Of a stretch of DNA of 26,060 nucleotides, positions 8,080 to 21,979 are shown in pieces. Source of the DNA: a bacterium (GTDB lineage: Bacteria; JAHJDO01); NCBI GenBank assembly GCA_030611945.1, contig JAUWOV010000013.1, forward strand, positions 1 through 26,060, in the 5' to 3' direction. The translations under genes were made by a program, and so were the position numbers. Under the pieces are notes generated by a model. The model saw only the letters and a list, made by a program, of their open reading frames with translations. It searched no databases and was not told the origin of the DNA. Numbering within the stretch: the first letter of the stretch is position 1; each line of letters opens with the position of its first letter.

Positions 8080-8646
8080 TTAGAATGAGATGCTGATTCC
8101 AATAAGGACTTTGCTTGAATTAAGTGGCACGTTGGGCTGTTTCATGCCAGCGTTAGATATGTGATGGAATCTATATTCTAATACAAATGAACGGTCTTTT
8201 TTGGTCTTGTAACTAAGTCCTAATCCCGCTTGATAGTTCCCGCAGAGATTAGCTCCAACGCCAGGTACGTTCGCTTCCGTATAGACAGGACCGCCGCCTA
8301 CAAAGAAATATGGTCTGTATTTCTGCGATGTCTTCAGCGTCCAGGATGCAAGAAAGTTCAAGCCAAAAATCTGGCCGTCATCAGGTTTAATAAGATAAGA
8401 CACAGGTAGTTCTATCAGGAAGTCATGACTTCCGCGATACCAGTCACGTCCGGTATCTTTGATTTTTCGCCTATATCTCAGAATTGTATCCACTGTCTCA
8501 ACATGTTCACGAGTTTTGCCGAGTCCCGGATGCGTGGTGCTGTAGCCGGTCATCAACATCCATGGCTCATCAGTCTGATCCGCATCGGCAAAGGCGACGT
8601 TAATTGCAACAACTGTGAACAGCAGTATTAGACAGGTTAATTTCAT
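8080..8646 (-). CDS. PagL-like lipid A deacylase family outer-membrane protein
   Basis: A 188-residue protein with a signal peptide (about residues 1-20, ending AFA) and alternating beta-barrel sequence ending in Phe (VLIGISISF), as expected for an outer-membrane barrel. The stretch EYRFHHISNAG is the PagL (acyloxyacyl hydrolase, PF09411-type) signature. His162 and Ser164 match the catalytic His and Ser of Pseudomonas PagL, which removes the 3-O-acyl chain from lipid A. The catalytic Glu should stand 12 residues after the Ser, and here Asn176 is found. Many family members have this PNPGxN version, so activity is uncertain. It is the last gene of the lipid operon, overlapping the acyltransferase stop by ATGA. 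It may trim, or simply bind, the lipid made by the operon. Confidence 0.78.
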   Translation of the reverse strand: MKLTCLILLFTVVAINVAFADADQTDEPWMLMTGYSTTHPGLGKTREHVETVDTILRYRRKIKDTGRDWYRGSHDFLIELPVSYLIKPDDGQIFGLNFLASWTLKTSQKYRPYFFVGGGPVYTEANVPGVGANLCGNYQAGLGLSYKTKKDRSFVLEYRFHHISNAGMKQPNVPLNSSKVLIGISISF

Positions 8647-9581
8647 GTCTTCATTTTACCTGTGCTTTTTGTTTCTTCTTCCCACACATTAGAAAACAAA
8701 AAATATTGGTAAGGGTGTTTGTGTGTATATGCTTCAAGCAACGCGGCAAATTTTTGAACCCATTGCTGTAGTTGATGACGTTTATCCTTCCCATTCTCAT
8801 AGCATGGATACAGTACATTAGATACATCAACAATGTACTTATAAGCAGATACCTTCTCTGACAATAGAACAACTACTGGACATCTTGCTGCTGCTGCAAT
8901 TGTAAAGCCGCCGTAAGGGAACCATGCTTTCTTTCCAAGAAATAAAACTTCCACAGCCTTAAACCCATATCTGCGGTCACCCATAATGGACACAATCTGC
9001 TTTTCCTTTAACTTGTTCATGATTTCAACAATTCCACCAAGATCCTGTTCCGGAGAAATAATCCTGATATGGTTTTGTTCCCTGCTAATGCGCAGTGAAC
9101 TTTGCACTGCAGGGTTATCTTCCGGACGCATAACCAGATACACTGTTTTTTCCAGTTTTTTCAACACAGTCATAGCAACTTGCCAGTTACCGACATGAGC
9201 GGTCAACAAAATTATTCCATGATGTGAACTCTGAACCAGAGATTTAATTCGTTCATATCCGCGTATTTGGATATCAAATATTTCCTGTCCTGAAACAACG
9301 GCGTATCGGTCAATAAGCTGTTTTCCCTGATTTACAAACAACAAATATACGTGTCTCAGCCTTTTTACAAAACCATGTGACGGAAACCTTCTCTTAATAT
9401 ATGCAGTTGCTCCAGAAATAGCTGTTCGGTCAAACAGCACATAATAGATACATACAATATATAATAATCCATACGCTCCTCTTAACCCAAAGAGGCGCAG
9501 AGAAATCCTGAAAAACCAGAATCCAAGGGCATTGCCCCTTCTCTTTGCTTCAATTTTTCGAGATGCTTTAGCTTTTTTCAC
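8643..9581 (-). CDS. LpxL/HtrB-like lipid acyltransferase
   Basis: A 312-residue protein of the bacterial lipid A biosynthesis acyltransferase family, which moves an acyl chain from ACP to a glycolipid at the inner membrane. The N-terminus RGNALGFWFFRISLRLFGLR followed by AYGLLYIV is the usual membrane-entry helix. The catalytic motif is TAHVGNWQ with His129, the MRPEDNP and GDRRYG segments follow, and AAAARCPVV stands where family members have the acceptor-binding strand. The HX4(D/E) motif ends in Gln134 instead of an acid. The longest frame would begin inside the previous gene. I choose the GTG at 9581, which overlaps the DUF2062 stop as GTGA. Last but one in the lipid operon, it probably attaches the operon's acyl product to a lipid. 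Confidence 0.85.
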   Translation of the reverse strand: MKKAKASRKIEAKRRGNALGFWFFRISLRLFGLRGAYGLLYIVCIYYVLFDRTAISGATAYIKRRFPSHGFVKRLRHVYLLFVNQGKQLIDRYAVVSGQEIFDIQIRGYERIKSLVQSSHHGIILLTAHVGNWQVAMTVLKKLEKTVYLVMRPEDNPAVQSSLRISREQNHIRIISPEQDLGGIVEIMNKLKEKQIVSIMGDRRYGFKAVEVLFLGKKAWFPYGGFTIAAAARCPVVVLLSEKVSAYKYIVDVSNVLYPCYENGKDKRHQLQQWVQKFAALLEAYTHKHPYQYFLFSNVWEEETKSTGKMKT

Positions 9582-9997
9582 TTGTTCTGCAATGCTTTCG
9601 CTGTGAAAAACACACTTATTCCTACAATAACTGCCAACACAGGCGCAATGATAAGAGAGCCAAGCAGCCATTCCAACAATCTGTCGTGGAATTGCTTAAA
9701 AATAACATCCATGGAAACATCGGTTAACCAGTGACCGTGCCGCATATAATATCCCAGTTCAATGCAGGCTACAGGGACAAAAGGCGGCATGCATAAATGC
9801 TGTATAGCCAGCGCCATAATCTTATTCAGACGCAGTCGTATTGTTACATAGATGATTGCTAATGTATGAGTAGAGATAAGTGGTAATGTTCCAAGAAAAA
9901 TCCCTACACCTGCAGATAAACCTAATCCAGCGGGAGTAGCATTTTCCCTTAACAACGTTTTCAATAATTTAATTGGGGAAAAGTTATTATGTTTCAC
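9578..9997 (-). CDS. DUF2062 membrane protein
   Basis: A 139-residue protein of the DUF2062 family. The family core is seen in RENATPAGLGLSAGVGIFLG followed by TLPL, then ALAIQHLCMPPFVPVACIELGYYMRHG, then a C-terminal hydrophobic segment (LIIAPVLAVIVGISVFF). About three membrane segments are expected. The biochemical function is unknown; the domain is often found near or fused to glycosyl- and acyltransferases. I choose the GTG at 9997, overlapping the radical SAM gene by 11 bases, because the longer frame upstream only repeats sequence inside that gene. It is coupled to the acyltransferase gene by a GTGA overlap, which suggests joint work at the inner membrane. Confidence 0.8.
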   Translation of the reverse strand: MKHNNFSPIKLLKTLLRENATPAGLGLSAGVGIFLGTLPLISTHTLAIIYVTIRLRLNKIMALAIQHLCMPPFVPVACIELGYYMRHGHWLTDVSMDVIFKQFHDRLLEWLLGSLIIAPVLAVIVGISVFFTAKALQNK

Positions 9998-11354
9998 GCA
10001 GTCTTTTTCTTTTATTTCCAGAAATAAGCATATCCCACATAGAGCCTGAATATCCAAGTTTATGAAGAAACTGCAAACTGGTATCCATGACATCAGGAGG
10101 AAAAATACAATGCCTAATGCCGGAAAACGCTTTAGTTAATGTATCCTCCAGCCACTCCTTATCAATGTTTGGAGAAATGTAGTAAACCGGTTCTAACAAA
10201 TCCTGACCGCTGGAAAGAAGCCCTTCTTTAGTCGCTATGCGCTCAAGAGTGGTGCCGGGAAGAATTCGTATTCCCATAAAAATAAAAGATACCGTTTTTT
10301 TCAGGTTCTTGATATTCTCTATTCCCTCAAGCACTGTTTCTCGCGTCTCGCCCGGACAGCCAAACATATAATAATGCGCTGTAGCAATACCTGAACGGAC
10401 AAAGGAATCGTTGCACTCAATGATGTCCCTGAACAGAAATGATTTACCAAGTTTACGAAGTGTTGTATCGGTAGATGCATCGGATCCAAGTTCCGCTGCT
10501 TTCAGCCCGGTCTGTTTCATCAGCGCTATAATCTCATCATCCAGCTTTTCCGGCTTGAAGAACGCAGTCCATGGAGTAGATATCCCTCTTTTTGCCATTT
10601 CCCGAACTACGTTCAGATAATGTTTTTGATCATCATTAAAAACCGAATCGGTAAAGAAGATATATTTTGCCTTGTGCGTATCAGTCAGTATCTGAATATC
10701 ATCAACCACTGCCTTCGGATCCCTGCAGCGAATACTTGTCCCTTCCAAAATAGGATAAGAGCAGTATACACAATTATGTGTACAACCACGCTTTGTTTGT
10801 ATAGGTCCAATATTCCCCGTTTTTAGATAAAAATCTATGATACCGGGGTCGTAACACGCAGATGAAATTTCTTTTCCGCTTAACTTGGATGCAGTCCGTA
10901 TGCAACGCTCTTTTGGATACTTCCCTTTTTCAGCATCTGCAACAAATTTAAGCATAAGCGTCTCTCCCTCTCCAACAATTCCATAATCAGCGCCAACTTC
11001 ACGTAGGATTGTTTCAGGCATAATGGAAAATGCCGCCCCGCCAAGCACTATCGGCACATTTGTTTGCGTGCGAATTGTTTGCACAATATCTTTAGCAACT
11101 TCAATATATCTTTGTTCATTTAGAAGGTTTACATTATCAATATTGCGAATTGATACACCAATAATGTCCGGAGTACTGTCTCCGATTGCGCTGCAAAGCG
11201 CATTCATAGACTTATTATTCTGAAGAAAATCAAACTGATATACCTTATGTCCTCCATTACGCAGAGCTGCTGCAATCATGCCTAATCCCAATGGATATAC
11301 AGGATATGGAGTGCTGGCAATATTGGAAGCAATCAGCAGGATTCTCACAACCAT
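9987..11354 (-). CDS. B12-binding radical SAM protein (second copy in the operon)
   Basis: A 455-residue two-domain enzyme. Residues 1-140 form a Rossmann-like cobalamin-binding domain (LLIASN, PLGLGMIAAALRNGGHKV, GVSIRN, VLGGAAFS, YGIVGEGE). From about 180 a radical SAM domain carries the cluster motif C191-x3-C195-x2-C198 in RGCTHNCVYCSYP, followed by FFTDSVFN and FGCPGETRET. The DxHxxG His ligand is absent, which is common in this class. It resembles the lipid-biosynthesis B12/radical SAM proteins found with ladderane-type clusters (from memory). Methylation, cyclisation or desaturation of an acyl chain are all possible. It overlaps the other radical SAM gene by ten bases; a GTG at 11348 is an alternative start. 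Confidence 0.85.
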   Translation of the reverse strand: MVVRILLIASNIASTPYPVYPLGLGMIAAALRNGGHKVYQFDFLQNNKSMNALCSAIGDSTPDIIGVSIRNIDNVNLLNEQRYIEVAKDIVQTIRTQTNVPIVLGGAAFSIMPETILREVGADYGIVGEGETLMLKFVADAEKGKYPKERCIRTASKLSGKEISSACYDPGIIDFYLKTGNIGPIQTKRGCTHNCVYCSYPILEGTSIRCRDPKAVVDDIQILTDTHKAKYIFFTDSVFNDDQKHYLNVVREMAKRGISTPWTAFFKPEKLDDEIIALMKQTGLKAAELGSDASTDTTLRKLGKSFLFRDIIECNDSFVRSGIATAHYYMFGCPGETRETVLEGIENIKNLKKTVSFIFMGIRILPGTTLERIATKEGLLSSGQDLLEPVYYISPNIDKEWLEDTLTKAFSGIRHCIFPPDVMDTSLQFLHKLGYSGSMWDMLISGNKRKRLRET

Positions 11355-12592
11355 GCTCGATTGGCATTTAATCTGGCTCTTTTATAAGTCATGTCTTTCT
11401 TTTCTTTTTCAATAACTTTAAGAAACAGCTTTGCCATCTTCATTTCTTTGCCGCAGTCAGAATAAAATGTTTCCCATGCATAGTGATACATCTTTTGCAG
11501 TGACTTTGCAGTCATTTTAGCCGGTTTAAATACAACTTCCCCTGTTGTGTATTGAATCCAGTTGTTATGAAGAATTCTATTCTCTTTTTCCAGCTGATTT
11601 CTTATCGGCGTATGAAGAAATGGAGTAAGGATAGTGAATTCAGCAAGATCAAGATTTATTTCCAAAAGAAAATCAACTAACCGCTTTATATAATCTTCAT
11701 CATGATAGTCCAATCCGAGAATAATAGTCCCTTCAACTCCTATACCGCGTTCCTGCAAATGTTTCACTCTTCTGCGAATATGATCCGAGGTATCTATTAT
11801 TGCCTGATACACATACCAGCATCCTGCTTTAGCGGCTAAATCCAATATTTCATCATCATCCTTTATGGGATGAGATATCCACTTCTTTTTCAATGGAGCA
11901 ATTGCCTTGAACAGCTCCTTTTCCCATTCATCGTTCTGCGCTAAGGAATTATCAACAAAAAATAACCTGTTATTGTTAATGCTTTCCAGCTCCCTCACTA
12001 CTGCGTCAATAGGACGCGGTCTGAATTTGCGCCCTCCCAAATATGGCGTACAGCAGGGAAAACAATCAAATCGACATCCTCGAGATGCATGTACCAGATC
12101 AACCATCTGTACACCGCGAAAATTATATAGTTCACGCTTAAGAATACTGCGTTTGGCAGTCCCAACCAGATTCATGTCGGGAAAATCGTGAAAAAAGTCA
12201 TACGTTTTTTCTAGATGACCTTTTTTAAAATCGTCAATAACCTTATCAAACTTACCTTCAGCCTCCCCTAAAAAAACAGCATCAGCATGAGACATTGTCT
12301 CTTCCGCATGAAGCATTGTTGCAATGCCGCCAAATACCACCTTTTTCCCATGAGCCCGATACCAGTCGGCAATCTCCCATGCGCGGGGCATCTGGCATGT
12401 CAGCATAACCGAGAGCACAACTAAGTCTGCGTCTTCAGAAAAATCAAGTTTCTCAACATTTTCATCACAAAAAGAAATTTCAACATCATCACTCAGCGCT
12501 GCAGCAAAACACACCGGACCATGAGGCGGCAGATTAAATTCCGTCTGGTCCATTAGTTTCGGCCATGTGGGATATATCAGCTTTATTTTCAT
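11345..12592 (-). CDS. B12-binding radical SAM protein (first copy in the operon)
   Basis: A 415-residue protein with a shortened cobalamin-binding domain (MKIKLIYPTWP, LPPHGPVCFAAALSD, VVLSVMLTCQMPRAWEIADW, VVFGGIATMLH, AVFLGEAEG) and a radical SAM domain with C173-x3-C177-x2-C180 in RGCRFDCFPCCTPY. LFFVDNSLAQND and IILGLDYHDED are the usual later strands. It differs clearly from the neighbouring radical SAM protein, so this is not a recent duplication. BchE, HpnJ and similar B12/SAM enzymes carry out methylation or ring formation; the substrate here is presumably the ACP-bound or lipid-bound chain made by the ketosynthase pair (inference). The start ATG overlaps the ketosynthase-like stop (ATGA) and has AAAAGGAT just before it. 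Confidence 0.83.
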   Translation of the reverse strand: MKIKLIYPTWPKLMDQTEFNLPPHGPVCFAAALSDDVEISFCDENVEKLDFSEDADLVVLSVMLTCQMPRAWEIADWYRAHGKKVVFGGIATMLHAEETMSHADAVFLGEAEGKFDKVIDDFKKGHLEKTYDFFHDFPDMNLVGTAKRSILKRELYNFRGVQMVDLVHASRGCRFDCFPCCTPYLGGRKFRPRPIDAVVRELESINNNRLFFVDNSLAQNDEWEKELFKAIAPLKKKWISHPIKDDDEILDLAAKAGCWYVYQAIIDTSDHIRRRVKHLQERGIGVEGTIILGLDYHDEDYIKRLVDFLLEINLDLAEFTILTPFLHTPIRNQLEKENRILHNNWIQYTTGEVVFKPAKMTAKSLQKMYHYAWETFYSDCGKEMKMAKLFLKVIEKEKKDMTYKRARLNANRAWL

Positions 12593-13167
12593 ATCCTTTT
12601 TGAAGAAGCGTCCTCTTCTTTTTTCATCACAAAACAGACAGCTTTGTTTTTACCGACTTTCATAGCCACTACTGTTGATGCTTCTTTGCGGGAGATTATG
12701 CCTTCTGCATATTGCAGTAAAGATGGAATTTGTTTTTGCGGAAAACCGATATACAATAATGGTCCCTGAAATCCAAAGTGTATTGATGCTTCTGCCAGAG
12801 GACTTGACGGAAGTGTGTAGATAAAAAGATTTCCGCGCGCGAGTTTTCTGCCTGTCTGCACGTAATCTTCGAAATAATTCAGATTGGATTTCAGACATCC
12901 GTCGGCATTTGTGCCGATGATAGCAATATCCTGTTTGCGTTTTTCGGAATACTTTATTCCTGCATCATGCAGCGCCAAAGCACCTGCGCAGCAAGCCATT
13001 TTTGACGTTATGTCAAACCTTCCGAAATTCTTTACAGGATACAAAAATACTGATTCATTCTGCAGCTTTGAATGCAGAGATTTTATATCAGTATAATCTC
13101 TGCGTATTTTTCTTTTTACACAGCCATATTTTTCTTTAGCGATCCAGCCAATACCTGAAATAATCAT
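12589..13167 (-). CDS. Half-length ketosynthase-like protein (chain-length-factor-like)
   Basis: A 192-residue protein matching only the N-terminal half of a beta-ketoacyl synthase, as in the PF13723-type proteins of polyene clusters. IAIIGTNADGC (81-91), FIYTLPSSPLAEASIHFGF (115-133) and GP (135-136) follow thiolase-fold order. Eight residues after GP the operon's ketosynthase has its active Cys; this protein has Gln144. Gln at this position is the hallmark of the chain-length factor (KS-beta) of type II polyketide synthases. The C-terminal half with the two catalytic His is missing, so it cannot condense by itself. It probably pairs with the adjacent ketosynthase and shapes its product length. 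It overlaps genes on both sides by ATGA, which suggests equimolar synthesis. Confidence 0.78.
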   Translation of the reverse strand: MIISGIGWIAKEKYGCVKRKIRRDYTDIKSLHSKLQNESVFLYPVKNFGRFDITSKMACCAGALALHDAGIKYSEKRKQDIAIIGTNADGCLKSNLNYFEDYVQTGRKLARGNLFIYTLPSSPLAEASIHFGFQGPLLYIGFPQKQIPSLLQYAEGIISRKEASTVVAMKVGKNKAVCFVMKKEEDASSKRI

Positions 13168-14312
13168 AACTGCTGCTTATCACATTTTTTCAATATCAAT
13201 GCGGAATTCACTCCGCCAAATCCGGCATTGATAGAAATAGTTACAGGGTTGTTAAATGCACACTGTTCATTGGAGACCCAGCCCTCAGCTTCATTATCAG
13301 CAACACGCAGATTAACTGTAGGCGGAACAAGTTTTTTTCTTAATGACTGTAATGCCACAATTACCTCTACAAGACCAGCTGCCCCCATCGTATGCCCTAT
13401 TCCTCCCTTAATTGAGTATGTTGGCACAGCTTTGGACGTAAAAACAGATTTAAACGCCTTCATTTCCATCGCATCATTATATATCGTTCCCGTACCATGC
13501 GCAGCTATGCATCCCACGACATTTTCAGAGATATTCGCTGATCGCAGGGCTTTACGCATAGCCAGCGCCAGTCCGCCGCCATCTCTGGACGGACCTGTCA
13601 TGTGATTGGCATCATTTGTCAGTCCCCATCCTGCTATTTCTCCGATAATAAATCTTTTTTCCTGAAGAGCTCTTTCTTTACTCATAACCAAAACAAATCC
13701 TGCCGCTTCGCCAAGGCTTAGTCCCCTTCTGTTTTTATCAAATGGCCGCGCTGTATCTTTATCTAACGCCATCAAAGAAGAAAATCCGGCAAAAACAAAT
13801 TCACTTACAATGTCACAAGCAACTATCAGCGCGCAATCATGCTCTTTACTACGAATCATTGCTGATGCCTGGGCAATTGCGCTGCTTGAAGAAGTACATG
13901 CCGCAGAAATAATAATTCCGGGCGACTTTATTCCGCTCAAACATTGCACCTTGCTTAACAGACATCCTGGCGCGCTTTCGTTCGCATTGCCTTTGCCGCT
14001 AAGAACCTGTTTCTCCAGAATATCTATTTCGCCTGTTGTGGTTGCTAAAATTAAAAGTGCGTCCTTTGGAATAATGGCAGACGCTTTCTTTAGCAACGGC
14101 TTCAGCATCTGCATTACCAGAGAATCACTTTGCCCTGTTTTAAGTTCAGCGATTGTAGCCGCTTTTTTTGTTTGAAACGCCTCTGTATCAAAACGGTTTA
14201 ACGGATTTATTGCAGTCTTTCCGGATAAAAGCCCATTCCAGCACGCATCAATACCCAGTCCATAAGGAGTTATGAGGTCACATGCAACAACAACTGCCTC
14301 CGGCGCATGCAT
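13164..14312 (-). CDS. Beta-ketoacyl-ACP synthase (KAS II type)
   Basis: A 382-residue condensing enzyme with a full Cys-His-His set: C139 in SAACTSSSSA, H272 in AAHGTGTIYND, and K302/H307 in SIKGGIGHTMGAAG. It adds two-carbon units from malonyl-ACP to an acyl-ACP in the cytoplasm. RPFDKNRRGLSLGEAAGF and the C-terminal NAGFGGVNSALIL are typical FabF-type strands. An ATG at 14333 would add seven residues. I prefer the ATG at 14312, one base after the hotdog gene stop, because AAGGAA stands seven bases before it. The short, operon-bound form, next to a Gln-type partner, points to a dedicated ketosynthase rather than housekeeping FabF. Neither an acyl carrier protein nor a ketoreductase is in the operon, so these must be shared with general fatty acid synthesis. 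Confidence 0.88.
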   Translation of the reverse strand: MHAPEAVVVACDLITPYGLGIDACWNGLLSGKTAINPLNRFDTEAFQTKKAATIAELKTGQSDSLVMQMLKPLLKKASAIIPKDALLILATTTGEIDILEKQVLSGKGNANESAPGCLLSKVQCLSGIKSPGIIISAACTSSSSAIAQASAMIRSKEHDCALIVACDIVSEFVFAGFSSLMALDKDTARPFDKNRRGLSLGEAAGFVLVMSKERALQEKRFIIGEIAGWGLTNDANHMTGPSRDGGGLALAMRKALRSANISENVVGCIAAHGTGTIYNDAMEMKAFKSVFTSKAVPTYSIKGGIGHTMGAAGLVEVIVALQSLRKKLVPPTVNLRVADNEAEGWVSNEQCAFNNPVTISINAGFGGVNSALILKKCDKQQL

Positions 14313-14313
14313 A

Positions 14314-14706
14314 TTAGTTTCCTTGTGTTTCATCTTTGAAACCTACTCTCAGCTGCAGCTTGGCAACTTTTTTGTTTTTACTGGTTACTAATGCTTTTAT
14401 GAGCGCTTCGCTGTTGCTTTCTGTTTGTTTTCTGTAATTAAAAACAAGTTCTTCTTCTGGAGAAACCGGTGAAAGGAATTTTGCCGAAACAATTTCCTTC
14501 AATCTAATATCTTTCTTTTCCCATGCCTGAAGCATTACTATAACCGCCTGTATTTTACAAACACCAGGAAGAACAGGTTTGCCTGGAAAATGCCCCCGAA
14601 ACCCAATGAATTCTGCTGGGAAAAGAAAGCGCGCATATACCTCCCCTTTTTTAGTTTCAGCTAAATCAAACATGCATTGTTTTATCTCCTGTATGAGCTT
14701 ATTCAC
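14314..14706 (-). CDS. FabZ-type hotdog protein (3-hydroxyacyl-ACP dehydratase family)
   Basis: A 130-residue single-hotdog protein. FRGHFPGKPVLPGVCKIQAV is the FabZ/FabA signature, with His39 in GHFPG. In FabZ a catalytic Glu lies 14 residues later; here it is Gln53 (in KIQAV). The family removes water from 3-hydroxyacyl-ACP to make a trans-2 double bond. With Gln instead of Glu it may be slow, act with a partner, or serve as a binding or shuttling protein. The start is a GTG at 14706 overlapping the lipoprotein stop by four bases (GTGA). Its place just before the ketosynthase supports a role in chain building. Confidence 0.8.
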   Translation of the reverse strand: MNKLIQEIKQCMFDLAETKKGEVYARFLFPAEFIGFRGHFPGKPVLPGVCKIQAVIVMLQAWEKKDIRLKEIVSAKFLSPVSPEEELVFNYRKQTESNSEALIKALVTSKNKKVAKLQLRVGFKDETQGN

Positions 14707-15398
14707 GTCTGAATCTCTTTCAATCGCACAGTTAGCTGATAGTTATATTTATGATGTCTGAGCATAATGCCGGATGGATATAGTTTCCCGTTCTTCCTGC
14801 GGTACTCATAATAAAAAACACTCCATATCTTTCGCCACCCTTTATAATATCGTTTTTCAACCAACAGGTTGTCAGCGCCGGCGAATGTGTATTCCATTAC
14901 ACCTTTTTCTGCAGACTGCCTGAAAACAATCTTGTTTTTCTTTTTATATATTTTAGCTTCAGGGTCAGGAATACAGTCAAAATAAATTCTTTTAATATCA
15001 TCTGCCACTGCCTTAGCAAAATTGCCGGGAAAAGAAGCTCCTTCAAAAGCGAACTTGCATTTAACACTGCTATTATTCCCGGATAATTCAAATAGCTTAA
15101 TACCTGCATGATTAAGACAGACAATCGTAAAAAGCTTTTGAATGGCGTCAATATCAGTGTATCCAATAGCGGAGAACTTGTGCCGCCTATACTGGAAAAC
15201 AATTGTGCTAAGTACCTTGAATTTTTGAGGAAGGGTACTGGCAAATTGCTCCCGAATTGCTGCAGGATGCACTTTGCTGACAGAAACATATTGAACCCTT
15301 TTAAACGGGACACTGCTGCATCCTGAAATGCACAATACAAGCAATACAAAGACTAAATTCTTAATTTTCTTTTCTTTGTGTCTATGTGCCTTTGCCAC
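14703..15398 (-). CDS. Lipoprotein of the lipid operon (DUF3261-like)
   Basis: A 231-residue lipoprotein. A basic N-terminus (KAHRHKEKKIKN), a hydrophobic stretch (LVFVLLVL) and a lipobox CISG-C27 are clear, so it should be lipidated and anchored in the inner or outer membrane facing the periplasm. The rest is mixed beta-strand sequence (VFQYRRHKFSAIGYTDID, IKLFELSGN, IVFRQS, YYEYRRKNGKLYPSGIML). Aryl-polyene clusters carry a DUF3261 lipoprotein in the same place, between exporter and dehydratase genes. I infer a similar part in lipid delivery but cannot confirm the family by eye. It starts with a GTG 17 bases inside the exporter gene; no ATG fits. Confidence 0.7.
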   Translation of the reverse strand: MAKAHRHKEKKIKNLVFVLLVLCISGCSSVPFKRVQYVSVSKVHPAAIREQFASTLPQKFKVLSTIVFQYRRHKFSAIGYTDIDAIQKLFTIVCLNHAGIKLFELSGNNSSVKCKFAFEGASFPGNFAKAVADDIKRIYFDCIPDPEAKIYKKKNKIVFRQSAEKGVMEYTFAGADNLLVEKRYYKGWRKIWSVFYYEYRRKNGKLYPSGIMLRHHKYNYQLTVRLKEIQT

Positions 15399-17739
15399 TT
15401 TGTGCCTTTTTTACTGTTAATCTATGCAGCGATGGAATAACCAACAGCGCTGAAATATACCCTCCTGTTACTCCTATTACAAGCGTTATACCAATAGAAA
15501 ACAATACAGGATGCATGGCAAACAAAAGCGCACCTGCTCCAATAATTGTTGTAAGCGCTGACAATGAAACTGCCATACGCGTTCCTGTTTTCAAATTATA
15601 CCGACAAGTATAAACCATGAATATCCCGTAGTCAATGCAGAGGCCGATAACAATTATACCGGCAATAACACAGGGAGCATTTAGAGATAGTCCAATCGCC
15701 GGCATGATCCCCAAGATCAATAGAATGCCTGTGATAACCGGAATCAGAGCAAGCAAAGTCAGCCGTATGTTTCTCAACAATAAACATGTTAATGCCAGAA
15801 TTAACAACGCCGTAATTCCTGATAAAAAGATAACTTCTGAGGAGACTGACTGAGAAAGCATACGGGAAAAAGTATTCACGGATACTAAAAATGTCTTTGG
15901 ATAACGACTGCTTATTGCGCTCAGCGCTTTAATATATTGATCTTTATCCGGAAAAAATGATAACACCTGATATCCATCCGCTTTTTTCAATATAAATCGT
16001 TCCTTCAACCTGTTAAAAAAGGTAAGTCCTTCAGGCATATTTTCAATAACTTCGTCGGTATATAGATGTTTGAAAAACGGAGAAAATGCATCATTGGAAA
16101 AATGATAGTCTTGCCCATGCTCCTGAAGAAGCTCTCTCAGTTTTAATTCTCTTCCCTGTTTCCAGAACTTGTTCCAGCGCGCAGAGTTTGCTGTTCGTGT
16201 TTGATTTGACAGCCACAATTTTGAAAAACTTGTAAACTCCATATTTACTGCTTCGGCGTAAATGCGCTCATTACGCTGAAGCGTCTCTTCCAAATTTTTC
16301 CCTGATACAACAAGGATTGCCGGTTTGTCCGCGCCTCCCCACACGTTATGAAATTCCTGTTCGGTTTGTATGACATCCTGTTTGCTTCCGTCCAATTGAC
16401 TGATATCGCTATTAAATTCTACCTGCCGCGATAAAACTATTGCGGCAATTATAATCGCTCCCCAACATGCAATGCATATCCGGTCAGACGTTTGCGAATG
16501 CAGGGAACTGGTTTTCCTGAACATAACGGGAAGATTTTTATAACTCTTTCCTGTTAAAAGATGAGGTAGAATAAATAAGGCGCAGACAAGACAGAGAATA
16601 ATACTGATGATTGAGAAAAGAGCAAGCTGATGATACCCCTGAACGCTGGAAAAGAAAAACGCAGTAAAAACACTTATTGTGGTTAATGCAGCGATTATTA
16701 CGGGTTTTATTATTTTCTTAACTGCATCAGCCCTACCGTCTCCTGTTCGTACAGCCAAATACACATGAATCCCGTAATCCACAGCAATGCCGGCAACAAC
16801 GGCCCCCATACCAATAATAAAATATGACAGTTTCCCAAGAATAATAGCTGATAAATTTATTGAAACAAGAACTGATATCAGCGGTATGATAAATATCAGA
16901 ACTGCTCTTATATCCCTGAAGACGAACAGGAATAATAATAGAAAGGCAACTGATACAATGGTCAACGTTAGGCGAATATCCTTTTTCATTACATCTTCAT
17001 TGCTGATTGTGTGAATATGCCCGGCAATAATGTCAGCTGAAATAAACTCAGGCAGAGACTCCAGCTGTTTATGCAGATACTCTATTAGGTTTTTTGAGCC
17101 GAATCCATCAGTAAGACGTACAGGCGTTTTAAGTATAAGCATAGCGTTCCTGCCATCCTGACTGATAAAATAACCGTCTTTGATTTGAACCTTATATCCT
17201 AAAGAACTGGAAAGCTTTTGTATATTGGAGAGAAATCCTATTTTTATTCCAAGCGGATCAGAGCGGATAAACGGCGTTACAAACCCACTGCCCGGAGTCA
17301 GTAATTGCTGATAGTCTCTACTCAGACTCGTTTTTACCCCTTCAGATGTTATTTGTTTTGCGATTTTGGAGAGCTCCTGTTCGCTTAGCAGCTGCGGAAC
17401 ATACCTCATAAAGGAATGCATCTCCTGCATTAGATCTGCTTTGGAAACGCCGCTTATTACATCTGTTATTAAAGGCGGCTTTAAAGAGTTTTCCAATTGG
17501 TCAACAGCTTGAATAAGGTCATGAGTGATATATTCCGGGGATTTTAGTCTTAGAGAAAGAATAACCTTATCCGAAAGATTTGATTCCCGAAGAAAACGCA
17601 TACTGCGAAGAATCTCAGGATTCGCAGGAAGCATTAGTTCAATGTTATTATCAAAAGAAATAGACCTGAGACCAATCGCCGAAATAAGGATTATACCTGC
17701 TGCAAGTACGGATATAATACGTTTCCGTTTATCAGCCAC
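15382..17739 (-). CDS. MMPL/RND-family lipid exporter
   Basis: A 785-residue inner-membrane transporter of two similar halves, each with one membrane segment, a large periplasmic domain and five more segments. Proton-relay Asp-Tyr pairs stand in the fourth helix of each half: D321-Y322 (GIAVDYGIHVY) and D703-Y704 (GLCIDYGIFMVY), as in MmpL3. The family exports lipids or hydrophobic compounds by proton motive force. Similar exporters occur in aryl-polyene clusters. An ATG at 17766 would overlap lolA by 35 bases. I prefer the GTG at 17739, because GGGAGG lies nine bases upstream and MADKRKR is a good cytoplasmic N-terminus. With LolA and the lipoprotein it probably hands the finished lipid to the periplasm. 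Confidence 0.88.
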   Translation of the reverse strand: MADKRKRIISVLAAGIILISAIGLRSISFDNNIELMLPANPEILRSMRFLRESNLSDKVILSLRLKSPEYITHDLIQAVDQLENSLKPPLITDVISGVSKADLMQEMHSFMRYVPQLLSEQELSKIAKQITSEGVKTSLSRDYQQLLTPGSGFVTPFIRSDPLGIKIGFLSNIQKLSSSLGYKVQIKDGYFISQDGRNAMLILKTPVRLTDGFGSKNLIEYLHKQLESLPEFISADIIAGHIHTISNEDVMKKDIRLTLTIVSVAFLLLFLFVFRDIRAVLIFIIPLISVLVSINLSAIILGKLSYFIIGMGAVVAGIAVDYGIHVYLAVRTGDGRADAVKKIIKPVIIAALTTISVFTAFFFSSVQGYHQLALFSIISIILCLVCALFILPHLLTGKSYKNLPVMFRKTSSLHSQTSDRICIACWGAIIIAAIVLSRQVEFNSDISQLDGSKQDVIQTEQEFHNVWGGADKPAILVVSGKNLEETLQRNERIYAEAVNMEFTSFSKLWLSNQTRTANSARWNKFWKQGRELKLRELLQEHGQDYHFSNDAFSPFFKHLYTDEVIENMPEGLTFFNRLKERFILKKADGYQVLSFFPDKDQYIKALSAISSRYPKTFLVSVNTFSRMLSQSVSSEVIFLSGITALLILALTCLLLRNIRLTLLALIPVITGILLILGIMPAIGLSLNAPCVIAGIIVIGLCIDYGIFMVYTCRYNLKTGTRMAVSLSALTTIIGAGALLFAMHPVLFSIGITLVIGVTGGYISALLVIPSLHRLTVKKAQSGKGT

Positions 17740-18379
17740 GCGGCTTGACCTCCCATGCGGCATCATTGATCGGAGTATTCAGCATGGTATCATTAAATCT
17801 GAGAAGCGTACTGTCTCCACCCTTCTCTTTTATGTATATCTCGCAGAGATAGCGTTCATCCTCTCTGAATACAATCCTTACATAGCTGATAATATTATAA
17901 GCCATTGTATTTTCGCGCGGTATAAATTTAAGAGAAACAGGTTTTTGCCCGAGTACTGTCACGTTGTATTCTTCCAGTAATGACATATATATGCCTGAAA
18001 GCCACTTTCTCATTTGCCCGACAACGGTCTGAAACGCAGGATTATCCTTCATGCTTACCTTCTGAACCTGGTCTATATCCTCATCCCACTGCAGAATAAT
18101 ATCACCCCTTATAATCATAGAATACCGTGTTGGCTCTTCAGTATGCCATGCAAAAAGATCCGGCTTTTCAAGAAATATCCTGCCCTTCAAAATAATTTTC
18201 CTATCAAAGATCGCTAAATTTTTCTCCTGAACAAAACCGGTTTGCAAAGTTTTTATATCTGACATTTTTTCTTCAAGTCTTATAAGTACATCCTCCACAC
18301 GCTGCTCAGCATAGACATTAAGCGGAAACAGAGACATATATAATGCGATTAGTATTATTATTTTATTCATATTCGTCAT
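17732..18379 (-). CDS. lolA: LolA-like periplasmic lipid/lipoprotein carrier
   Basis: A 215-residue periplasmic protein. The signal peptide is residues 1-24 (cut after NVYA). The LolA fold is recognised by LQTGFVQEKNL, ILKGRIFLEKPDLFAWHTEEP, DEDIDQVQKV and a C-terminal strand pattern with AAWEVKP. LolA carries hydrophobic lipoproteins between membranes. Lol-type proteins coded with MMPL exporters, as here, are thought to carry the lipid product instead (inference). It is the first gene of the eleven-gene run. No Shine-Dalgarno is seen before the ATG at 18379, and a second ATG at 18370 is possible. A TATAAT nine bases upstream suggests a very short leader. A decayed fragment of the same gene lies at 18983-19047. 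Confidence 0.85.
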   Translation of the reverse strand: MTNMNKIIILIALYMSLFPLNVYAEQRVEDVLIRLEEKMSDIKTLQTGFVQEKNLAIFDRKIILKGRIFLEKPDLFAWHTEEPTRYSMIIRGDIILQWDEDIDQVQKVSMKDNPAFQTVVGQMRKWLSGIYMSLLEEYNVTVLGQKPVSLKFIPRENTMAYNIISYVRIVFREDERYLCEIYIKEKGGDSTLLRFNDTMLNTPINDAAWEVKPRG

Positions 18380-18400: not shown

Positions 18401-18655
18401 TTACTCTCCATAATGTGTTCTGGCTCTATGGATATAAACCGTCTTCTTCTTCTCGTCCACGGAATAAACAATCCTATCCCTATATGAAAGTCTAATTGAA
18501 AAAAATCCGGTAAGATCCCCGATTAATTTCTTGCCTGAATATGGTTCCTCAGCAACTCGTTTTAGTAAAATTTCTTTAAGCTTTTGTTTTAGTTTTAGAG
18601 ATAATTTTTCTACATCTTTGAAAGCGGTTTTTGTAATTCTAATTTCATAAGGCAT
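18401..18655 (-). CDS. RelE/YoeB-type toxin
   Basis: An 84-residue toxin of the RelE/ParE fold, probably a ribosome-dependent mRNA nuclease. The usual order is present: YEIRITKTAFKDVEKL helix, KKLIGDLTGFFSIRLSYRDR strand pair, IVYSVDEKKKTVYIHRARTHYG. The C-terminal Arg-His-Tyr group (HRARTHYGE) fits the RelE/YoeB active region. It shares one base with the antitoxin stop (TAATG), so the two are translated together. It ends only 21 bases before lolA, placing the lipid operon directly behind a toxin-antitoxin unit. Confidence 0.85.
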   Translation of the reverse strand: MPYEIRITKTAFKDVEKLSLKLKQKLKEILLKRVAEEPYSGKKLIGDLTGFFSIRLSYRDRIVYSVDEKKKTVYIHRARTHYGE

Positions 18656-18915
18656 TATTCCGTATTTCCAAAAACTTCATTAAATGAAACGCTTTCTCCA
18701 TCTTTCATTTGTTTTACAGATTTAGAAATGCTTTCTCTGAAACCAGGAATTGAAAGAAGTTCTAAAGTCTCCTGAAAGCTATCAAATTCCTCTTCCGACA
18801 TTAAAACCACATCTCCCTTTTTATAATGAATGTGATATATTTGATGCTTTTTAGTCGCTCCTTTGAGCATATCAAAAAAACCATTTCTAGCATCTGTCGC
18901 TGTTAAAGTAGTCAT
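18655..18915 (-). CDS. Phd/YefM-type antitoxin
   Basis: An 86-residue antitoxin. The N-terminal DNA-binding half has the Phd/YefM pattern (TLTATDARNGFFDMLKGATK, then HIHYKKGDVVLMSEEEFDSFQETLELL). The C-terminal part (ESISKSVKQMKDGESVSFNEVFGN) is the toxin-wrapping tail. A weak GGGGAAAAA precedes the ATG at 18915. The protein should repress its own promoter together with the toxin, and a fitting operator lies just upstream (18931-18981). Confidence 0.88.
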   Translation of the reverse strand: MTTLTATDARNGFFDMLKGATKKHQIYHIHYKKGDVVLMSEEEFDSFQETLELLSIPGFRESISKSVKQMKDGESVSFNEVFGNTE

Positions 18916-19138: not shown

Positions 19139-19726
19139 TTATAGAATATCGTTACTACTCAATAATGCTTCTATGCATAATGAGTATTCCTTATCTGCAC
19201 CACATTCATTTTTTAATTCTTCAAGTGCCTGCTCTCGCAATGCAGTATTAGCGGTACGGAAACAACTATCAATTGCTTTTTGTACAGAGTTTAATCTTTC
19301 ATTCCTTCTTTCCAATAGCTGTGCTCGATTTAGACCAATTCCTAGATTTTCACTAATTGTTATTTCACCTCTTTCTGACCCTTTTTTTTGCTTAACCAAT
19401 GCCCCGAGAGCCAAAATATATTTACTAGGATCTTCTTCATACGGATTTATATATGAGGTGCTTTCATTGTATTTGTTTTTTTTGATTCCATTACACTTAG
19501 AGCATACAAATCCTAAATTTGACCATTCGTATTCCAATGAGGGATATTTTGATTTTGGTTTTATATGCTCAATATCTCCATAATAGACATGAGATATTTT
19601 ACTTTCACAATACATACACTTGTCGTGACTTGCGTCTTTCAATGCTTTTTTGTTGTCTGTATGCTTGTAGTTTTCGTTTGAAAGTGCAGATGCGTTGGGA
19701 CAATTGGGTCTAATTATTCTAATCAT
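19139..19726 (-). CDS. HNH endonuclease (PtuB-like, TIGR02646-type)
   Basis: A 195-residue nuclease. CMYCE (C37, C40), GDIEHIKPKS (E53-H54), EYEWSNLGFVC and CSKCNGIKK (C75, C78) make a zinc-knuckle HNH of the type regularly coded behind an AAA ATPase, as in Septu (PtuAB) anti-phage systems and some retrons. It would cut nucleic acid when released or directed by the ATPase. Two ATGs stand in tandem (19729, 19726). GAGGT is better spaced to the second, which I use. It overlaps the ATPase gene by eight bases. The attC of the cassette follows 30 bases downstream. Confidence 0.85.
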   Translation of the reverse strand: MIRIIRPNCPNASALSNENYKHTDNKKALKDASHDKCMYCESKISHVYYGDIEHIKPKSKYPSLEYEWSNLGFVCSKCNGIKKNKYNESTSYINPYEEDPSKYILALGALVKQKKGSERGEITISENLGIGLNRAQLLERRNERLNSVQKAIDSCFRTANTALREQALEELKNECGADKEYSLCIEALLSSNDIL

Positions 19727-20966
19727 CATTTACCTCAATTAATTTGCTGATGGCTTCAGGCATAAGACCCTCAAGACCAATTGTTTTTAAATCGCTTCGC
19801 ATTTTTCCAAAGTTTTCCTTATTCATATCAATATTTGAAAACTTTTTAACAATATTGTTTAATTCTTCTTCTGCCCAAATCGGCATTGTAACTGATACAC
19901 CAAGAACCTCATCTAATATTTCAGAAGCAGTTTTGGCTTGATTAATTAAATCTAATTTTTGACTAATGATTTTTTTGTCGTCGTTGTACTTTAAAACATA
20001 TACGTTCGACTCTCGAACAGAACCAACAATAAGTGGACTATGAGTTGAAATAACAAAACGAGCCTTTGGAAATGCATTTAATAAATCAGGCAAAATTTGT
20101 CTTTGCATAGTTGGATGCAAATGATTCTCAATTTCATCTATGATTACTGTGAACTCTGTTATTTCCTTTGTAGAAAACATATAAATTTGCCATGCAATAT
20201 CTATTAGTGCACTGATGCCACCAGAAGCCTGTTCAAGCACAAATTCATCTTTACCATTATTGCAAATAAAAACAATCTCACGTTCACGGATTTCAAAGTC
20301 TTCAAACCCTAACGTTGCAGGGAGTAATTTCTCTAAGACTTCTTTAAATCCTTCAAAATTCTTAATTTGCTCTTCATCACTTGGCATTATTATCTTGTCT
20401 GTTTTCTTGACACCATAACCTTGAATAGCCCAGCCAATGAGGGTGTTTTTCATAAAAAAACTTGAAGATTGATTGTTATTTCCAATATATCTTTCTTTTG
20501 TTGCATTATAAACTTCTTGAAAGGCAGTGTCCTTATTCTTTTTACCAAAGGGAATGTTACTAATAGGTTGATAGCGAAATATCGCCCTATGAGATGGTAT
20601 AAAGAAGCACTTTACCTCCTGTTGTCCAGCAATTTGGATTTGATACTGCGGAGAATTGTTGTTTGGAATCTGAAGATTTGCTTTTTGACCTCCATCATAT
20701 TTGAGGTATCCAATGATATTATTGCTACTTTTATTTTCACCATTAAAAAGTCGTGAAAGAAAAGAAAAAACACCGGATGTTTTATCCTTTTTAGGCGTTG
20801 AAAGAGATTGAACATTCCAATTATTATGTCTGGCAAGTATGTTACTTAAAATTGTTGTTTTCCCACTCCCATTAGCTCCAGTTAAGACCGTAAGTTTATT
20901 GTGGAAATCAATGTCCACCATTAAGAATTGTTGCCATTCATTGATATTTAACTTTTCGAAATTCAT
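19719..20966 (-). CDS. AAA/ABC-type ATPase (PtuA-like)
   Basis: A 415-residue ATPase of the OLD/SMC-like AAA_21 group. Walker A is GANGSGKT (30-37). An ABC-type signature is in LEQASGGISALIDIAW. Walker B with the catalytic acid is VIIDEIENHLHP, and the switch His is in ISTHSPLI. Only a short coiled or insert region lies between, giving a protein a little smaller than classical PtuA. With the HNH partner it fits a Septu-like defence module, in which the ATPase senses infection and the nuclease acts. The N-terminus (KLNINEWQQFLMVDIDFHNK) is the usual first strand of this group, supporting the ATG at 20966. No reverse transcriptase or msr/msd is adjacent, so this is not a retron form. Confidence 0.85.
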   Translation of the reverse strand: MNFEKLNINEWQQFLMVDIDFHNKLTVLTGANGSGKTTILSNILARHNNWNVQSLSTPKKDKTSGVFSFLSRLFNGENKSSNNIIGYLKYDGGQKANLQIPNNNSPQYQIQIAGQQEVKCFFIPSHRAIFRYQPISNIPFGKKNKDTAFQEVYNATKERYIGNNNQSSSFFMKNTLIGWAIQGYGVKKTDKIIMPSDEEQIKNFEGFKEVLEKLLPATLGFEDFEIREREIVFICNNGKDEFVLEQASGGISALIDIAWQIYMFSTKEITEFTVIIDEIENHLHPTMQRQILPDLLNAFPKARFVISTHSPLIVGSVRESNVYVLKYNDDKKIISQKLDLINQAKTASEILDEVLGVSVTMPIWAEEELNNIVKKFSNIDMNKENFGKMRSDLKTIGLEGLMPEAISKLIEVNDD

Positions 20967-21192: not shown

Positions 21193-21924
21193 TCATCTTA
21201 AAAGCCTTAAATAGTCCTTTTGTGTTTCGCGTACTGTCCTTGCAATAAATTCTATAAAGTCCCCATCCGATGTATGTGCCTTTTCTAATGATTCTATATA
21301 ATCTTTGCGAAGAACGGGCGGAATGATCGCAATGACATAATTCTTTTGTAAAAGAACTAGGTTTGTTAAAAGCCTTGCTACTCTTCCATTCCCATCTATA
21401 AAAGGATGTATAAATACAAACTCTTTATGAACCAAAGCAGCGTATTCTATAGGGTGGTATTTTTGTTCTAATTTTTTTAATTTATCTGCAAATTCTTTCA
21501 TAAGAACAGGAATTTTATCCGGGTCAGGAAGAGTATATTTAGAGCCTGCAATAAAAACTTTCTCTGTTCTATATTTCCCTGCTTTATTCTCATTAATCCT
21601 ATGGTAGAAAAGTTTATGCAGCTTCTTAATATCTACTTCTAAAATGTTTGTGTTCTTTGCTAATTTATAAATATGATCATAAGCTTCGCTATGTCCTAAT
21701 GCCTCATATAAATCTTTAATAGGCTTTCCACCTATTGTTATGCCATCCTCTAAAACAATTCTGGTTTCTGTCTCGGTTAAGGAGTTTCCTTCCAAAGCGT
21801 TACTGGAATAAGTCAAGCCTACTCTATAATACTCTTTTAATTGCTTTAATATATTTTTAGATAATGGTCTAAAAGAATTAATCTCTTTTTGGAGTTTATC
21901 TATTTCGCCAAGTATTTTTATCAT
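21193..21924 (-). CDS. Fic-family AMPylator with N-terminal inhibitory motif
   Basis: A 243-residue protein. The catalytic loop HPFIDGNGRVAR (H173 to R184) is a complete Fic motif, for transfer of AMP (sometimes another nucleotide) to a protein hydroxyl. The inhibitory helix motif (S/T)xxxE(G/N) is S41-NAL-E45-G46 in TYSSNALEGN, at the N-terminal side, so this is a class II, self-inhibited Fic. GKYR and the flap strand VFIAGSKYTLPDP are also present. I use the ATG at 21924 (AAGGGA nearby) over a longer frame to 21972 that has no family sequence. No partner antitoxin gene is needed in this class. It lies between the tRNA cluster and the integron cassette, in the accessory region. Confidence 0.88.
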   Translation of the reverse strand: MIKILGEIDKLQKEINSFRPLSKNILKQLKEYYRVGLTYSSNALEGNSLTETETRIVLEDGITIGGKPIKDLYEALGHSEAYDHIYKLAKNTNILEVDIKKLHKLFYHRINENKAGKYRTEKVFIAGSKYTLPDPDKIPVLMKEFADKLKKLEQKYHPIEYAALVHKEFVFIHPFIDGNGRVARLLTNLVLLQKNYVIAIIPPVLRKDYIESLEKAHTSDGDFIEFIARTVRETQKDYLRLLR

Positions 21925-21979
21925 ATAATTTCCCTTTTTTTTGATTATACTACATTGTACTGCGAGTGTCACCTATGTT

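What the first reader, a model, noticed from the sequence alone, without database searches (positions are those of the whole stretch)
8080..18379. Eleven end-to-end overlapping genes for an unusual outer-membrane lipid
lolA, MMPL exporter, lipoprotein, hotdog protein, ketosynthase, half-ketosynthase, two B12 radical SAM proteins, DUF2062 protein, LpxL-like acyltransferase and PagL-like barrel are in one strand with overlaps of 4-17 bases or a 1-base gap (chosen starts). Seen directly: order, overlaps and motifs. Known: KS plus CLF, hotdog, DUF3261 lipoprotein, MMPL and LolA occur together in aryl-polyene clusters, and B12/SAM enzymes in ladderane-type clusters. Inference: this run makes, radically modifies, attaches and exports an acyl chain, and combines features of both cluster types without their ACP and ketoreductase.
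Basis: partly seen in the sequence, partly recalled or inferred. Interest (0 to 1): 0.85.

Follow-up and report, generated by a model that had tools for sequence, protein, structure and literature searches.

The report
Radical-SAM aryl-polyene-like lipid gene cluster
These eleven genes are the middle third of a roughly 27-gene set, kept in the same order in several phyla of mostly uncultured bacteria, that looks like the machinery for aryl-polyene outer-membrane lipids with added vitamin-B12 radical enzymes; its product is unknown.

Summary
The eleven ORFs exist as described. The order LolA–MMPL–DUF3261-like lipoprotein–hotdog–KS–half-KS–B12/rSAM2–B12/rSAM1–(GT2::)DUF2062–LpxL-like acyltransferase is not local: all 10 related loci that hold all ten genes keep it (Desulfobacterota, Omnitrophota, one unnamed phylum). 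There it is part of a larger operon. Upstream lie KR, phytoene-desaturase-like, KS, ACP, PlsC, CoA-ligase and rSAM::dehydratase genes; downstream lie ACP, KS, CLF, ACP, condensation-like, FAD and AMP-ligase genes. This genome has the same set split over four contigs, so "without ACP and ketoreductase" is wrong for the genome. Most members match, one to one, the aryl-polyene proteins of E. coli CFT073, including the outer-membrane transport set; no ApeH counterpart was found. Extra parts: two B12-radical-SAM enzymes (one is NCBIfam's "ladder_B12" equivalog), a third rSAM, a phytoene-desaturase-like enzyme and a PagL-like barrel. Resembling clusters were described in anammox bacteria and Desulfotalea in 2009, and antiSMASH calls "ladderane" clusters in these phyla; no product is known. 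The window's own oddity is a ~744-bp deletion that removed the glycosyltransferase domain. Best reading: a radical-SAM variant of the aryl-polyene/flexirubin outer-membrane lipid pathway. The chemistry is inferred.

The parts
17732..18379 (-). LolA-like periplasmic lipid carrier (ApeL-type)
   Evidence: NCBIfam LolA2_flexi 104.5 bits, under its cut-off 125; family HMM matches ApeL 2.6e-16
15382..17739 (-). MMPL/RND exporter (ApeM-type); 794-aa ORF from 17766, likely start GTG 17739
   Evidence: Pfam MMPL 33.9 bits; ApeM 9.5e-43; GGAGG before 17739
14703..15398 (-). DUF3261-like, LolB-like lipoprotein (ApeN-type)
   Evidence: Pfam DUF3261 4e-4, 20.6 bits, just under cut-off 22.3; ApeN 1e-4; same place between MMPL and hotdog in relatives
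14314..14706 (-). hotdog dehydratase-like protein (ApeI-type); Gln at the place of FabZ's acidic residue
   Evidence: Pfam FabA and ApeI-like over cut-off; ApeI 8.4e-14; alignment
13164..14312 (-). beta-ketoacyl synthase, catalytic Cys-His-His present (start ATG 14312 or 14333)
   Evidence: Pfam KS N and C domains; C-H-H in 25 of 25 relatives
12589..13167 (-). half ketosynthase (N-terminal thiolase-fold domain only), no catalytic Cys: chain-length-factor-like partner
   Evidence: profile vs PDB 1j3n 5.8e-10; AlphaFold model pLDDT 85, Foldseek FabF 4.7e-6, VIA Z 16.4; Cys absent in 29 of 29
11345..12592 (-). B12-binding radical SAM protein 2 (CxxxCxxC), the most conserved gene of the cluster; no equivalog
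   Evidence: Pfam B12-binding and Radical_SAM over cut-off; 68-92% identity across phyla; dN/dS 0.075 within genus
9987..11354 (-). B12-binding radical SAM protein 1, TIGR04072 rSAM_ladder_B12
   Evidence: 645.9 bits vs cut-off 360; closest solved relative TsrM 6wte
9578..9997 (-). DUF2062 membrane domain, C-terminal remnant of a GT2::DUF2062 protein; GT2 domain (~744 bp) deleted
   Evidence: deletion shown against G012; GT2 present in the relatives that hold the gene
8643..9581 (-). LpxL/HtrB-like acyltransferase (ApeJ C-terminal half type), motif HxGxWQ instead of HX4(D/E)
   Evidence: Pfam Lip_A_acyltrans; ApeJ 7.3e-34; motif in 25 of 26 relatives
8080..8646 (-). PagL-like outer-membrane beta-barrel, HxSN motif kept
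   Evidence: Pfam PagL 6.5e-17; next to AT in three congeners, next to KR or rSAM in other phyla

Best explanation
The eleven genes are the central part of a dispersed ~27-gene pathway for an outer-membrane lipid, built like the aryl-polyene/flexirubin pathway but with cobalamin-dependent radical-SAM tailoring. Inferred working: adenylating ligases load a starter onto dedicated ACPs. KS/CLF pairs (window KS + half-KS; KS2/CLF2 on C19) elongate it with malonyl units, and the KR on C113 and the hotdog dehydratases leave double bonds. The B12-radical-SAM enzymes rSAM1 and rSAM2, and perhaps the phytoene-desaturase-like FAD enzyme and the rSAM/SPASM::dehydratase, modify the ACP-bound chain; C-methylation is the most likely reaction by kinship to TsrM, cyclisation or C-C bond formation the alternative. 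The LpxL-like acyltransferase transfers the chain to a (glyco)lipid. MMPL lifts it out of the inner membrane, LolA carries it across the periplasm, the DUF3261-like lipoprotein inserts it into the outer membrane, and the PagL-like barrel may trim an acyl ester there. Shown here: gene content, order, homologies, active-site residues. Inferred: every enzymatic step and the product.
For: Ordered conservation across phyla: rSAM2-rSAM1 adjacent in 32/32 loci, KS-CLF 25/25, rSAM1-GT2 26/26, GT2-AT 24/24, and all ten genes in exact order in 10/10 loci that hold all ten. Family HMMs match E. coli CFT073 aryl-polyene proteins one to one: LolA-ApeL 3e-16, MMPL-ApeM 1e-42, LP-ApeN 1e-4, hotdog-ApeI 8e-14, TE-ApeK 1e-30, GT2-ApeJ N-half 7e-53, AT-ApeJ C-half 7e-34, PlsC-ApeD 4e-18, ACP1-ApeE 5e-24, KS2-ApeO 3e-82, CLF2-ApeC 7e-9, rSAM-fused DH-ApeP 2e-17, KR-ApeQ 5e-71. 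ApeL-M-N-O have the same order in E. coli (roles in PMC8253772). The rest of the set is in this genome: C113, C4, C19. Break points complement those of two congeners: window AT-PagL | ACP1, congeners DUF2062 | AT-PagL-ACP1. The genes compared with G012 are under purifying selection, dN/dS 0.08-0.31. rSAM1 is TIGR04072 'lipid biosynthesis B12-binding/radical SAM protein', nearest solved relative TsrM methyltransferase.
Against: No chemistry is known for any close relative. None of the cluster's ligases matches ApeH, and no aromatic ammonia lyase is in the genome, so an aryl starter is unproven. The half-KS does not match ApeC by sequence. The GT2 domain, thought to build the anchor, is deleted in this genome. 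The thioesterase gene found in most relatives is absent from the window locus, and it was not sought elsewhere in the genome. Dispersal over four contigs might mean partial decay, although selection on the intact genes argues against it.
Confidence: 0.62

Rival explanations
1. A true ladderane pathway: the B12-radical-SAM enzymes cyclise a polyunsaturated acyl-ACP into concatenated cyclobutanes, as proposed for anammox bacteria.
For: rSAM1 is the 'ladder_B12' equivalog. Gene types shared with the anammox loci: PD-like enzyme, phenylacetyl-CoA-ligase-like enzyme, paired normal and non-canonical FabF, two adjacent radical SAM genes, FabG, FabZ, ACPs, glycosyltransferase (PMC2649909; PMC4790861 Table 2). 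antiSMASH calls 'ladderane' clusters in Omnitrophota and Desulfobacterota (PMC9902471).
Against: D. psychrophila carries a similar cluster and made no detectable ladderanes (PMC2649909). Ladderanes are known only from anammox. No anammox SAM-methyltransferase-type gene was noticed in these loci (not searched for specifically). The outer-membrane export set points to an exported lipid, not an anammoxosome phospholipid.
Confidence: 0.06
2. An anaerobic polyunsaturated fatty-acid or hydrocarbon pathway: the PD-like and rSAM enzymes desaturate chains (the proposal of Rattray et al. 2009).
For: PD-like gene next to KS/ACP; D. psychrophila makes C31:8 and C31:9 hydrocarbons (PMC2649909).
Against: In gamma-proteobacteria long-chain polyunsaturated hydrocarbons are linked to pfa and ole genes (PMC6463001, title and abstract). 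The exporter/LolA/LolB-like and LpxL-like genes are not needed for a membrane PUFA or a hydrocarbon. KS/CLF + KR + DH already leave double bonds without a desaturase.
Confidence: 0.12
3. An ordinary aryl polyene or flexirubin-like pigment; the radical SAM enzymes only decorate the head group.
For: One-to-one match with Ape proteins; the ligase is close to FlxY (469 vs cut-off 520) and LolA to LolA2_flexi (104.5 vs 125).
Against: No ApeH match, no aromatic ammonia lyase, three radical SAM enzymes where E. coli ape has none; the two B12-rSAM genes sit in the core and are among the most conserved proteins of the cluster.
Confidence: 0.15
4. A lipid A remodelling system (LpxL-like acyltransferase plus PagL) that happens to neighbour fatty-acid genes.
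For: PagL and LpxL families.
Against: AT and PagL travel with KS/ACP/rSAM genes across phyla; the AT motif is HxGxWQ, not HX4(D/E), in 25 of 26; the AT family matches ApeJ 7e-34.
Confidence: 0.05

Closest known systems
Aryl polyene (APE) cluster of E. coli CFT073 / Xenorhabdus
   Same: ApeL-M-N-O order; KR, ApeI/ApeP-type dehydratases, ApeK-type thioesterase (in relatives), ApeJ-type GT2 + LpxL acyltransferase, ApeD-type PlsC, ApeE-type ACP, KS/CLF
   Different: No ApeH, ApeG, ApeB or ApeA match; adds B12-rSAM x2, rSAM/SPASM fused to the dehydratase, PD-like enzyme, condensation-like protein, FAD oxidoreductase, PagL; GT2 and AT on separate genes, GT2 fused to DUF2062
FASII/radical-SAM ('ladderane') loci of Kuenenia stuttgartiensis and Desulfotalea psychrophila (Rattray et al. 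2009, PMC2649909)
   Same: rSAM enzymes with KS paralogues, PD-like, phenylacetyl-CoA-ligase-like, ACP, FabG, FabZ, GT and a putative lipid-transport membrane protein; a B12-binding rSAM (kuste2803)
   Different: The published text does not mention aryl polyenes, flexirubin or MMPL
Flexirubin clusters of Bacteroidota
   Same: FlxY-like ligase, LolA2_flexi-like LolA (under the curated cut-offs)
   Different: Dialkylresorcinol genes and ammonia lyase not seen in the loci read; radical SAM core added
B12-radical-SAM enzymes TsrM, CysS, MgmA, OxsB
   Same: Domain order, Fe-S motif, fold similarity
   Different: Only about 13-20% identity in the fold alignments; substrate unknown

Membership tests
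TIGR04072 rSAM_ladder_B12 | score over curated cut-off 360 along the full model | tested here: met
   645.9 bits, model 1-443
Aryl polyene cluster | KS with chain-length-factor partner | tested here: met
   KS + Cys-less half-KS in the window; KS2/CLF2 on C19 match ApeO 3e-82 and ApeC 7e-9
Aryl polyene cluster | dedicated ACPs, ketoreductase and dehydratases | tested here: met
   elsewhere in this genome: ACPs C19 and C113, KR C113 (ApeQ 5e-71), DH window and C4
Aryl polyene cluster | ApeH-type aryl-acyl-ACP synthetase | tested here: not met
   neither ligase family matches ApeH (E 0.33 and 0.61); an aryl starter itself is not testable here
Aryl polyene cluster | LolA/MMPL/DUF3261 outer-membrane transport set | tested here: met
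   (the DUF3261 match is weak)
Aryl polyene cluster | ApeJ-type glycosyltransferase + acyltransferase | tested here: inconclusive
   AT present; GT2 domain deleted in this genome but present in relatives
Aryl polyene cluster | ApeK-type thioesterase in this genome | not tested
   present in most relatives, absent at the window locus; genome not searched for it
Anammox ladderane pathway | ladderane fatty acids made | not testable with these tools
   no lipid data for this organism
Anammox ladderane pathway | gene types PD, ligase, rSAM, paired FabF, ACP, FabG | tested here: met
   present over four contigs, compared with the published gene list; by type, not by direct sequence comparison with anammox proteins
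Flexirubin cluster | FlxY and LolA2_flexi over NCBIfam cut-offs | tested here: not met
   469.2 vs 520; 104.5 vs 125
PagL lipid A 3-O-deacylase | Pfam domain with HxSN motif and catalytic acid | tested here: inconclusive
   domain 62 bits and HxSN kept; at the place of the acid (position recalled from memory) the family has Asn

The most novel reading that the evidence does not exclude
A cross-phylum, anaerobe-type branch of the aryl-polyene superfamily makes an exported outer-membrane lipid whose acyl chain is rebuilt by paired B12-radical-SAM enzymes (methyl-branched or ring-bearing), a structural class not yet seen. The anammox 'ladderane' locus would then be a specialised descendant or cousin of this outer-membrane lipid pathway.
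Probability: 0.3. Interest if true: 0.85.

Novelty: new variant of a known kind. Interest (0 to 1): 0.62.

Why it matters
It offers a testable link between two puzzles: the missing pathway for ladderane lipids and the function of the many 'ladderane' clusters that genome mining reports in bacteria that make no known ladderanes. If most of the pathway is shared with aryl polyenes, the likely product is an exported outer-membrane lipid, and the question narrows to what two very conserved B12-radical-SAM enzymes do to an ACP-bound chain. Cultured sulfate reducers with related clusters could answer it.

Tried and rejected
The reading of the eleven genes as a complete system was rejected once relatives showed about 27 genes and the own genome held the rest. 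'No ACP or KR' was rejected. The half-KS as an ApeC orthologue: no sequence match to ApeC, and ApeC structures are not among the rows that VIA-align lists, which excludes nothing. The locus labelled Bacteroidales (L016) was discounted, being 98.7% identical over 14.5 kb to an Omnitrophota locus. Celluxanthene clusters were checked as a parallel; the paper does not mention radical SAM. PDB 9s5h is the best sequence match to the KS proteins, but its organism could not be learned. Horizontal transfer between phyla is suggested (window vs Desulfobacterales L008: rSAM2 80%, MMPL 63% against 58% for uL13) but was not tested against a species tree.

Full report
OBSERVATION. The eleven minus-strand ORFs are present. 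With sensible starts, the junctions are overlaps of 4 to 17 bases or a 1-base gap. Domain calls hold for PagL, LpxL-like AT, DUF2062, two B12-binding radical SAM proteins, KS, hotdog and MMPL; LolA rests on NCBIfam matches under their cut-offs and on ApeL. The DUF3261 lipoprotein and the half-KS are under Pfam cut-offs but are supported by a weak match to ApeN, by a profile match of the half-KS to FabF and by an AlphaFold model of the half-KS (pLDDT 85) that matches ketosynthase N-domains (Foldseek 4.7e-6; VIA Z 16.4, 157 residues aligned, rmsd 3.8).

EXTENT. A scan of named genomes with rSAM1 gave 12 close loci, and family searches in 285 Omnitrophota and 297 Desulfobacterota genomes gave 9 and 63 over cut-off. 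In the loci read, rSAM2–rSAM1 are adjacent in 32/32, KS–CLF in 25/25, GT2–AT in 24/24, and all ten core genes are in order in 10/10 loci that hold them all. The longest loci give one order: PagL – KR – PD-like – KS – ACP – PlsC – phenylacetyl-CoA-ligase-like (FlxY-like) – rSAM/SPASM::ApeP-like dehydratase – LolA – MMPL – DUF3261-like – ApeI-like – thioesterase – KS – half-KS – rSAM2 – rSAM1 – GT2::DUF2062 – AT – ACP1 – KS2 – CLF2 – (SmpA-like) – ACP2 – condensation-like – FAD oxidoreductase – AMP ligase. The window lies in a genus whose phylum has only five held genomes; three have rSAM1.

THIS GENOME. The set is split over contigs: C113 (KR–PD–KS–ACP, with a further ORF inserted between KS and ACP), C4 (PlsC–ligase–rSAM::DH), the window (LolA…AT–PagL) and C19 (ACP1–KS2–CLF2–ACP2–condensation–FAD–ligase). 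In two congeners the break lies between DUF2062 and AT, and AT–PagL–ACP1… form one operon; the different break points point back to one ancestral order. Relative to G012, the window has lost about 744 bp carrying the GT2 domain; the DUF2062 remainder is open and still shows dN/dS 0.13–0.20, though part of that signal predates the loss. An assembly fault cannot be excluded.

KINSHIP. HMMs of each family were compared with all 18 ape proteins of E. coli CFT073. Matches are one to one for ApeC (weak, CLF2), D, E, I, J (both halves), K, L, M, N (weak), O, P, Q. There is none to ApeH, G, B or A. Extra to APE are rSAM1, rSAM2, rSAM/SPASM, PD-like, DUF2062, PagL, the condensation-like protein and the FAD oxidoreductase. 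rSAM1 is the TIGR04072 equivalog; its nearest solved relatives are TsrM, AprD4, CysS and MgmA by sequence (the name MgmA for 9ccb is) and TsrM, MgmA, OxsB, AprD4 and CysS by fold (model pLDDT only 70). rSAM2 has no equivalog and is the most conserved protein (68–92% across phyla; dN/dS 0.075).

ACTIVE SITES. KS keeps Cys-His-His in 25/25; the half-KS lacks the Cys in 29/29, so it is probably a partner, not a catalyst; the AT motif is HxGxWQ in 25/26, unlike LpxL's HX4(D/E) (from general knowledge); the ApeI-like hotdog keeps the GHF…LPGV stretch in most members but not FabZ's acid. PagL keeps HxSN with Asn at the place of the third residue.

LITERATURE. Rattray et al. 2009 (PMC2649909) described FASII clusters with rSAM, PD-like, PCL, GT and a putative lipid-transport membrane protein in K. 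stuttgartiensis and D. psychrophila, with no ladderanes in the latter. Expression of anammox genes kuste3603-3608 in E. coli gave no ladderanes (PMC4790861). Cariaco Basin MAGs of Omnitrophota and Desulfobacterota carry antiSMASH 'ladderane' clusters of unknown function (PMC9902471). APE functions: PMC8358021 and PMC8253772. No paper in the library was found that holds three or more of the terms ladderane, aryl polyene, MMPL and LolA. The library lacks most subscription journals, so novelty of the link is provisional.

CONCLUSION. The run is real, conserved and part of a larger system. It works like an aryl-polyene pathway in synthesis, attachment and transport, but is not filed as an aryl-polyene cluster, because ApeH is missing and the aryl starter is unproven. 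It shares the B12-radical-SAM family and gene types with the anammox locus, without evidence that it makes ladderanes.

Noticed in passing
window 19139-20966 (-): A PtuA-like ATPase (PADLOC 3.8e-161) and PtuB-like HNH protein (8e-64) lie side by side: a Septu anti-phage defence system between the cluster and tig/clpP.
   Followed up: partly
window 18401-18915 (-): Two small ORFs that look like a RelE/ParE-type toxin and its antitoxin, directly upstream of lolA (read by eye; the domain search failed).
   Followed up: no
L026 9186-13696 (G010, same genus): A transporter pair that looks like RND permease plus TolC-like protein (by eye) is inserted between the half-KS and rSAM2, interrupting the otherwise tight block.
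   Followed up: no
L006 8787-9869 (own genome C113) and window 21193-21972: An ORF that looks Fic-like (by eye) sits between the KS and ACP of the C113 fragment; another Fic-like ORF lies in the window.
   Followed up: no
L119 (G580): A different small cluster: LolA - DUF3261-like - MMPL - condensation-like - TIGR04072-like rSAM - FAD oxidoreductase - AMP ligase, suggesting that the modules recombine.
   Followed up: no
L016 vs L019: A locus labelled Bacteroidales is 98.7% identical over 14.5 kb to an Omnitrophota locus: mis-binning or very recent transfer.
   Followed up: partly
L095-L106 except L096 (Desulfobacterota): A second, more diverged and Desulfobacterota-only clade of the same cluster type; L101/L102 lack the KS next to the half-KS and have PagL in its place.
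   Followed up: partly
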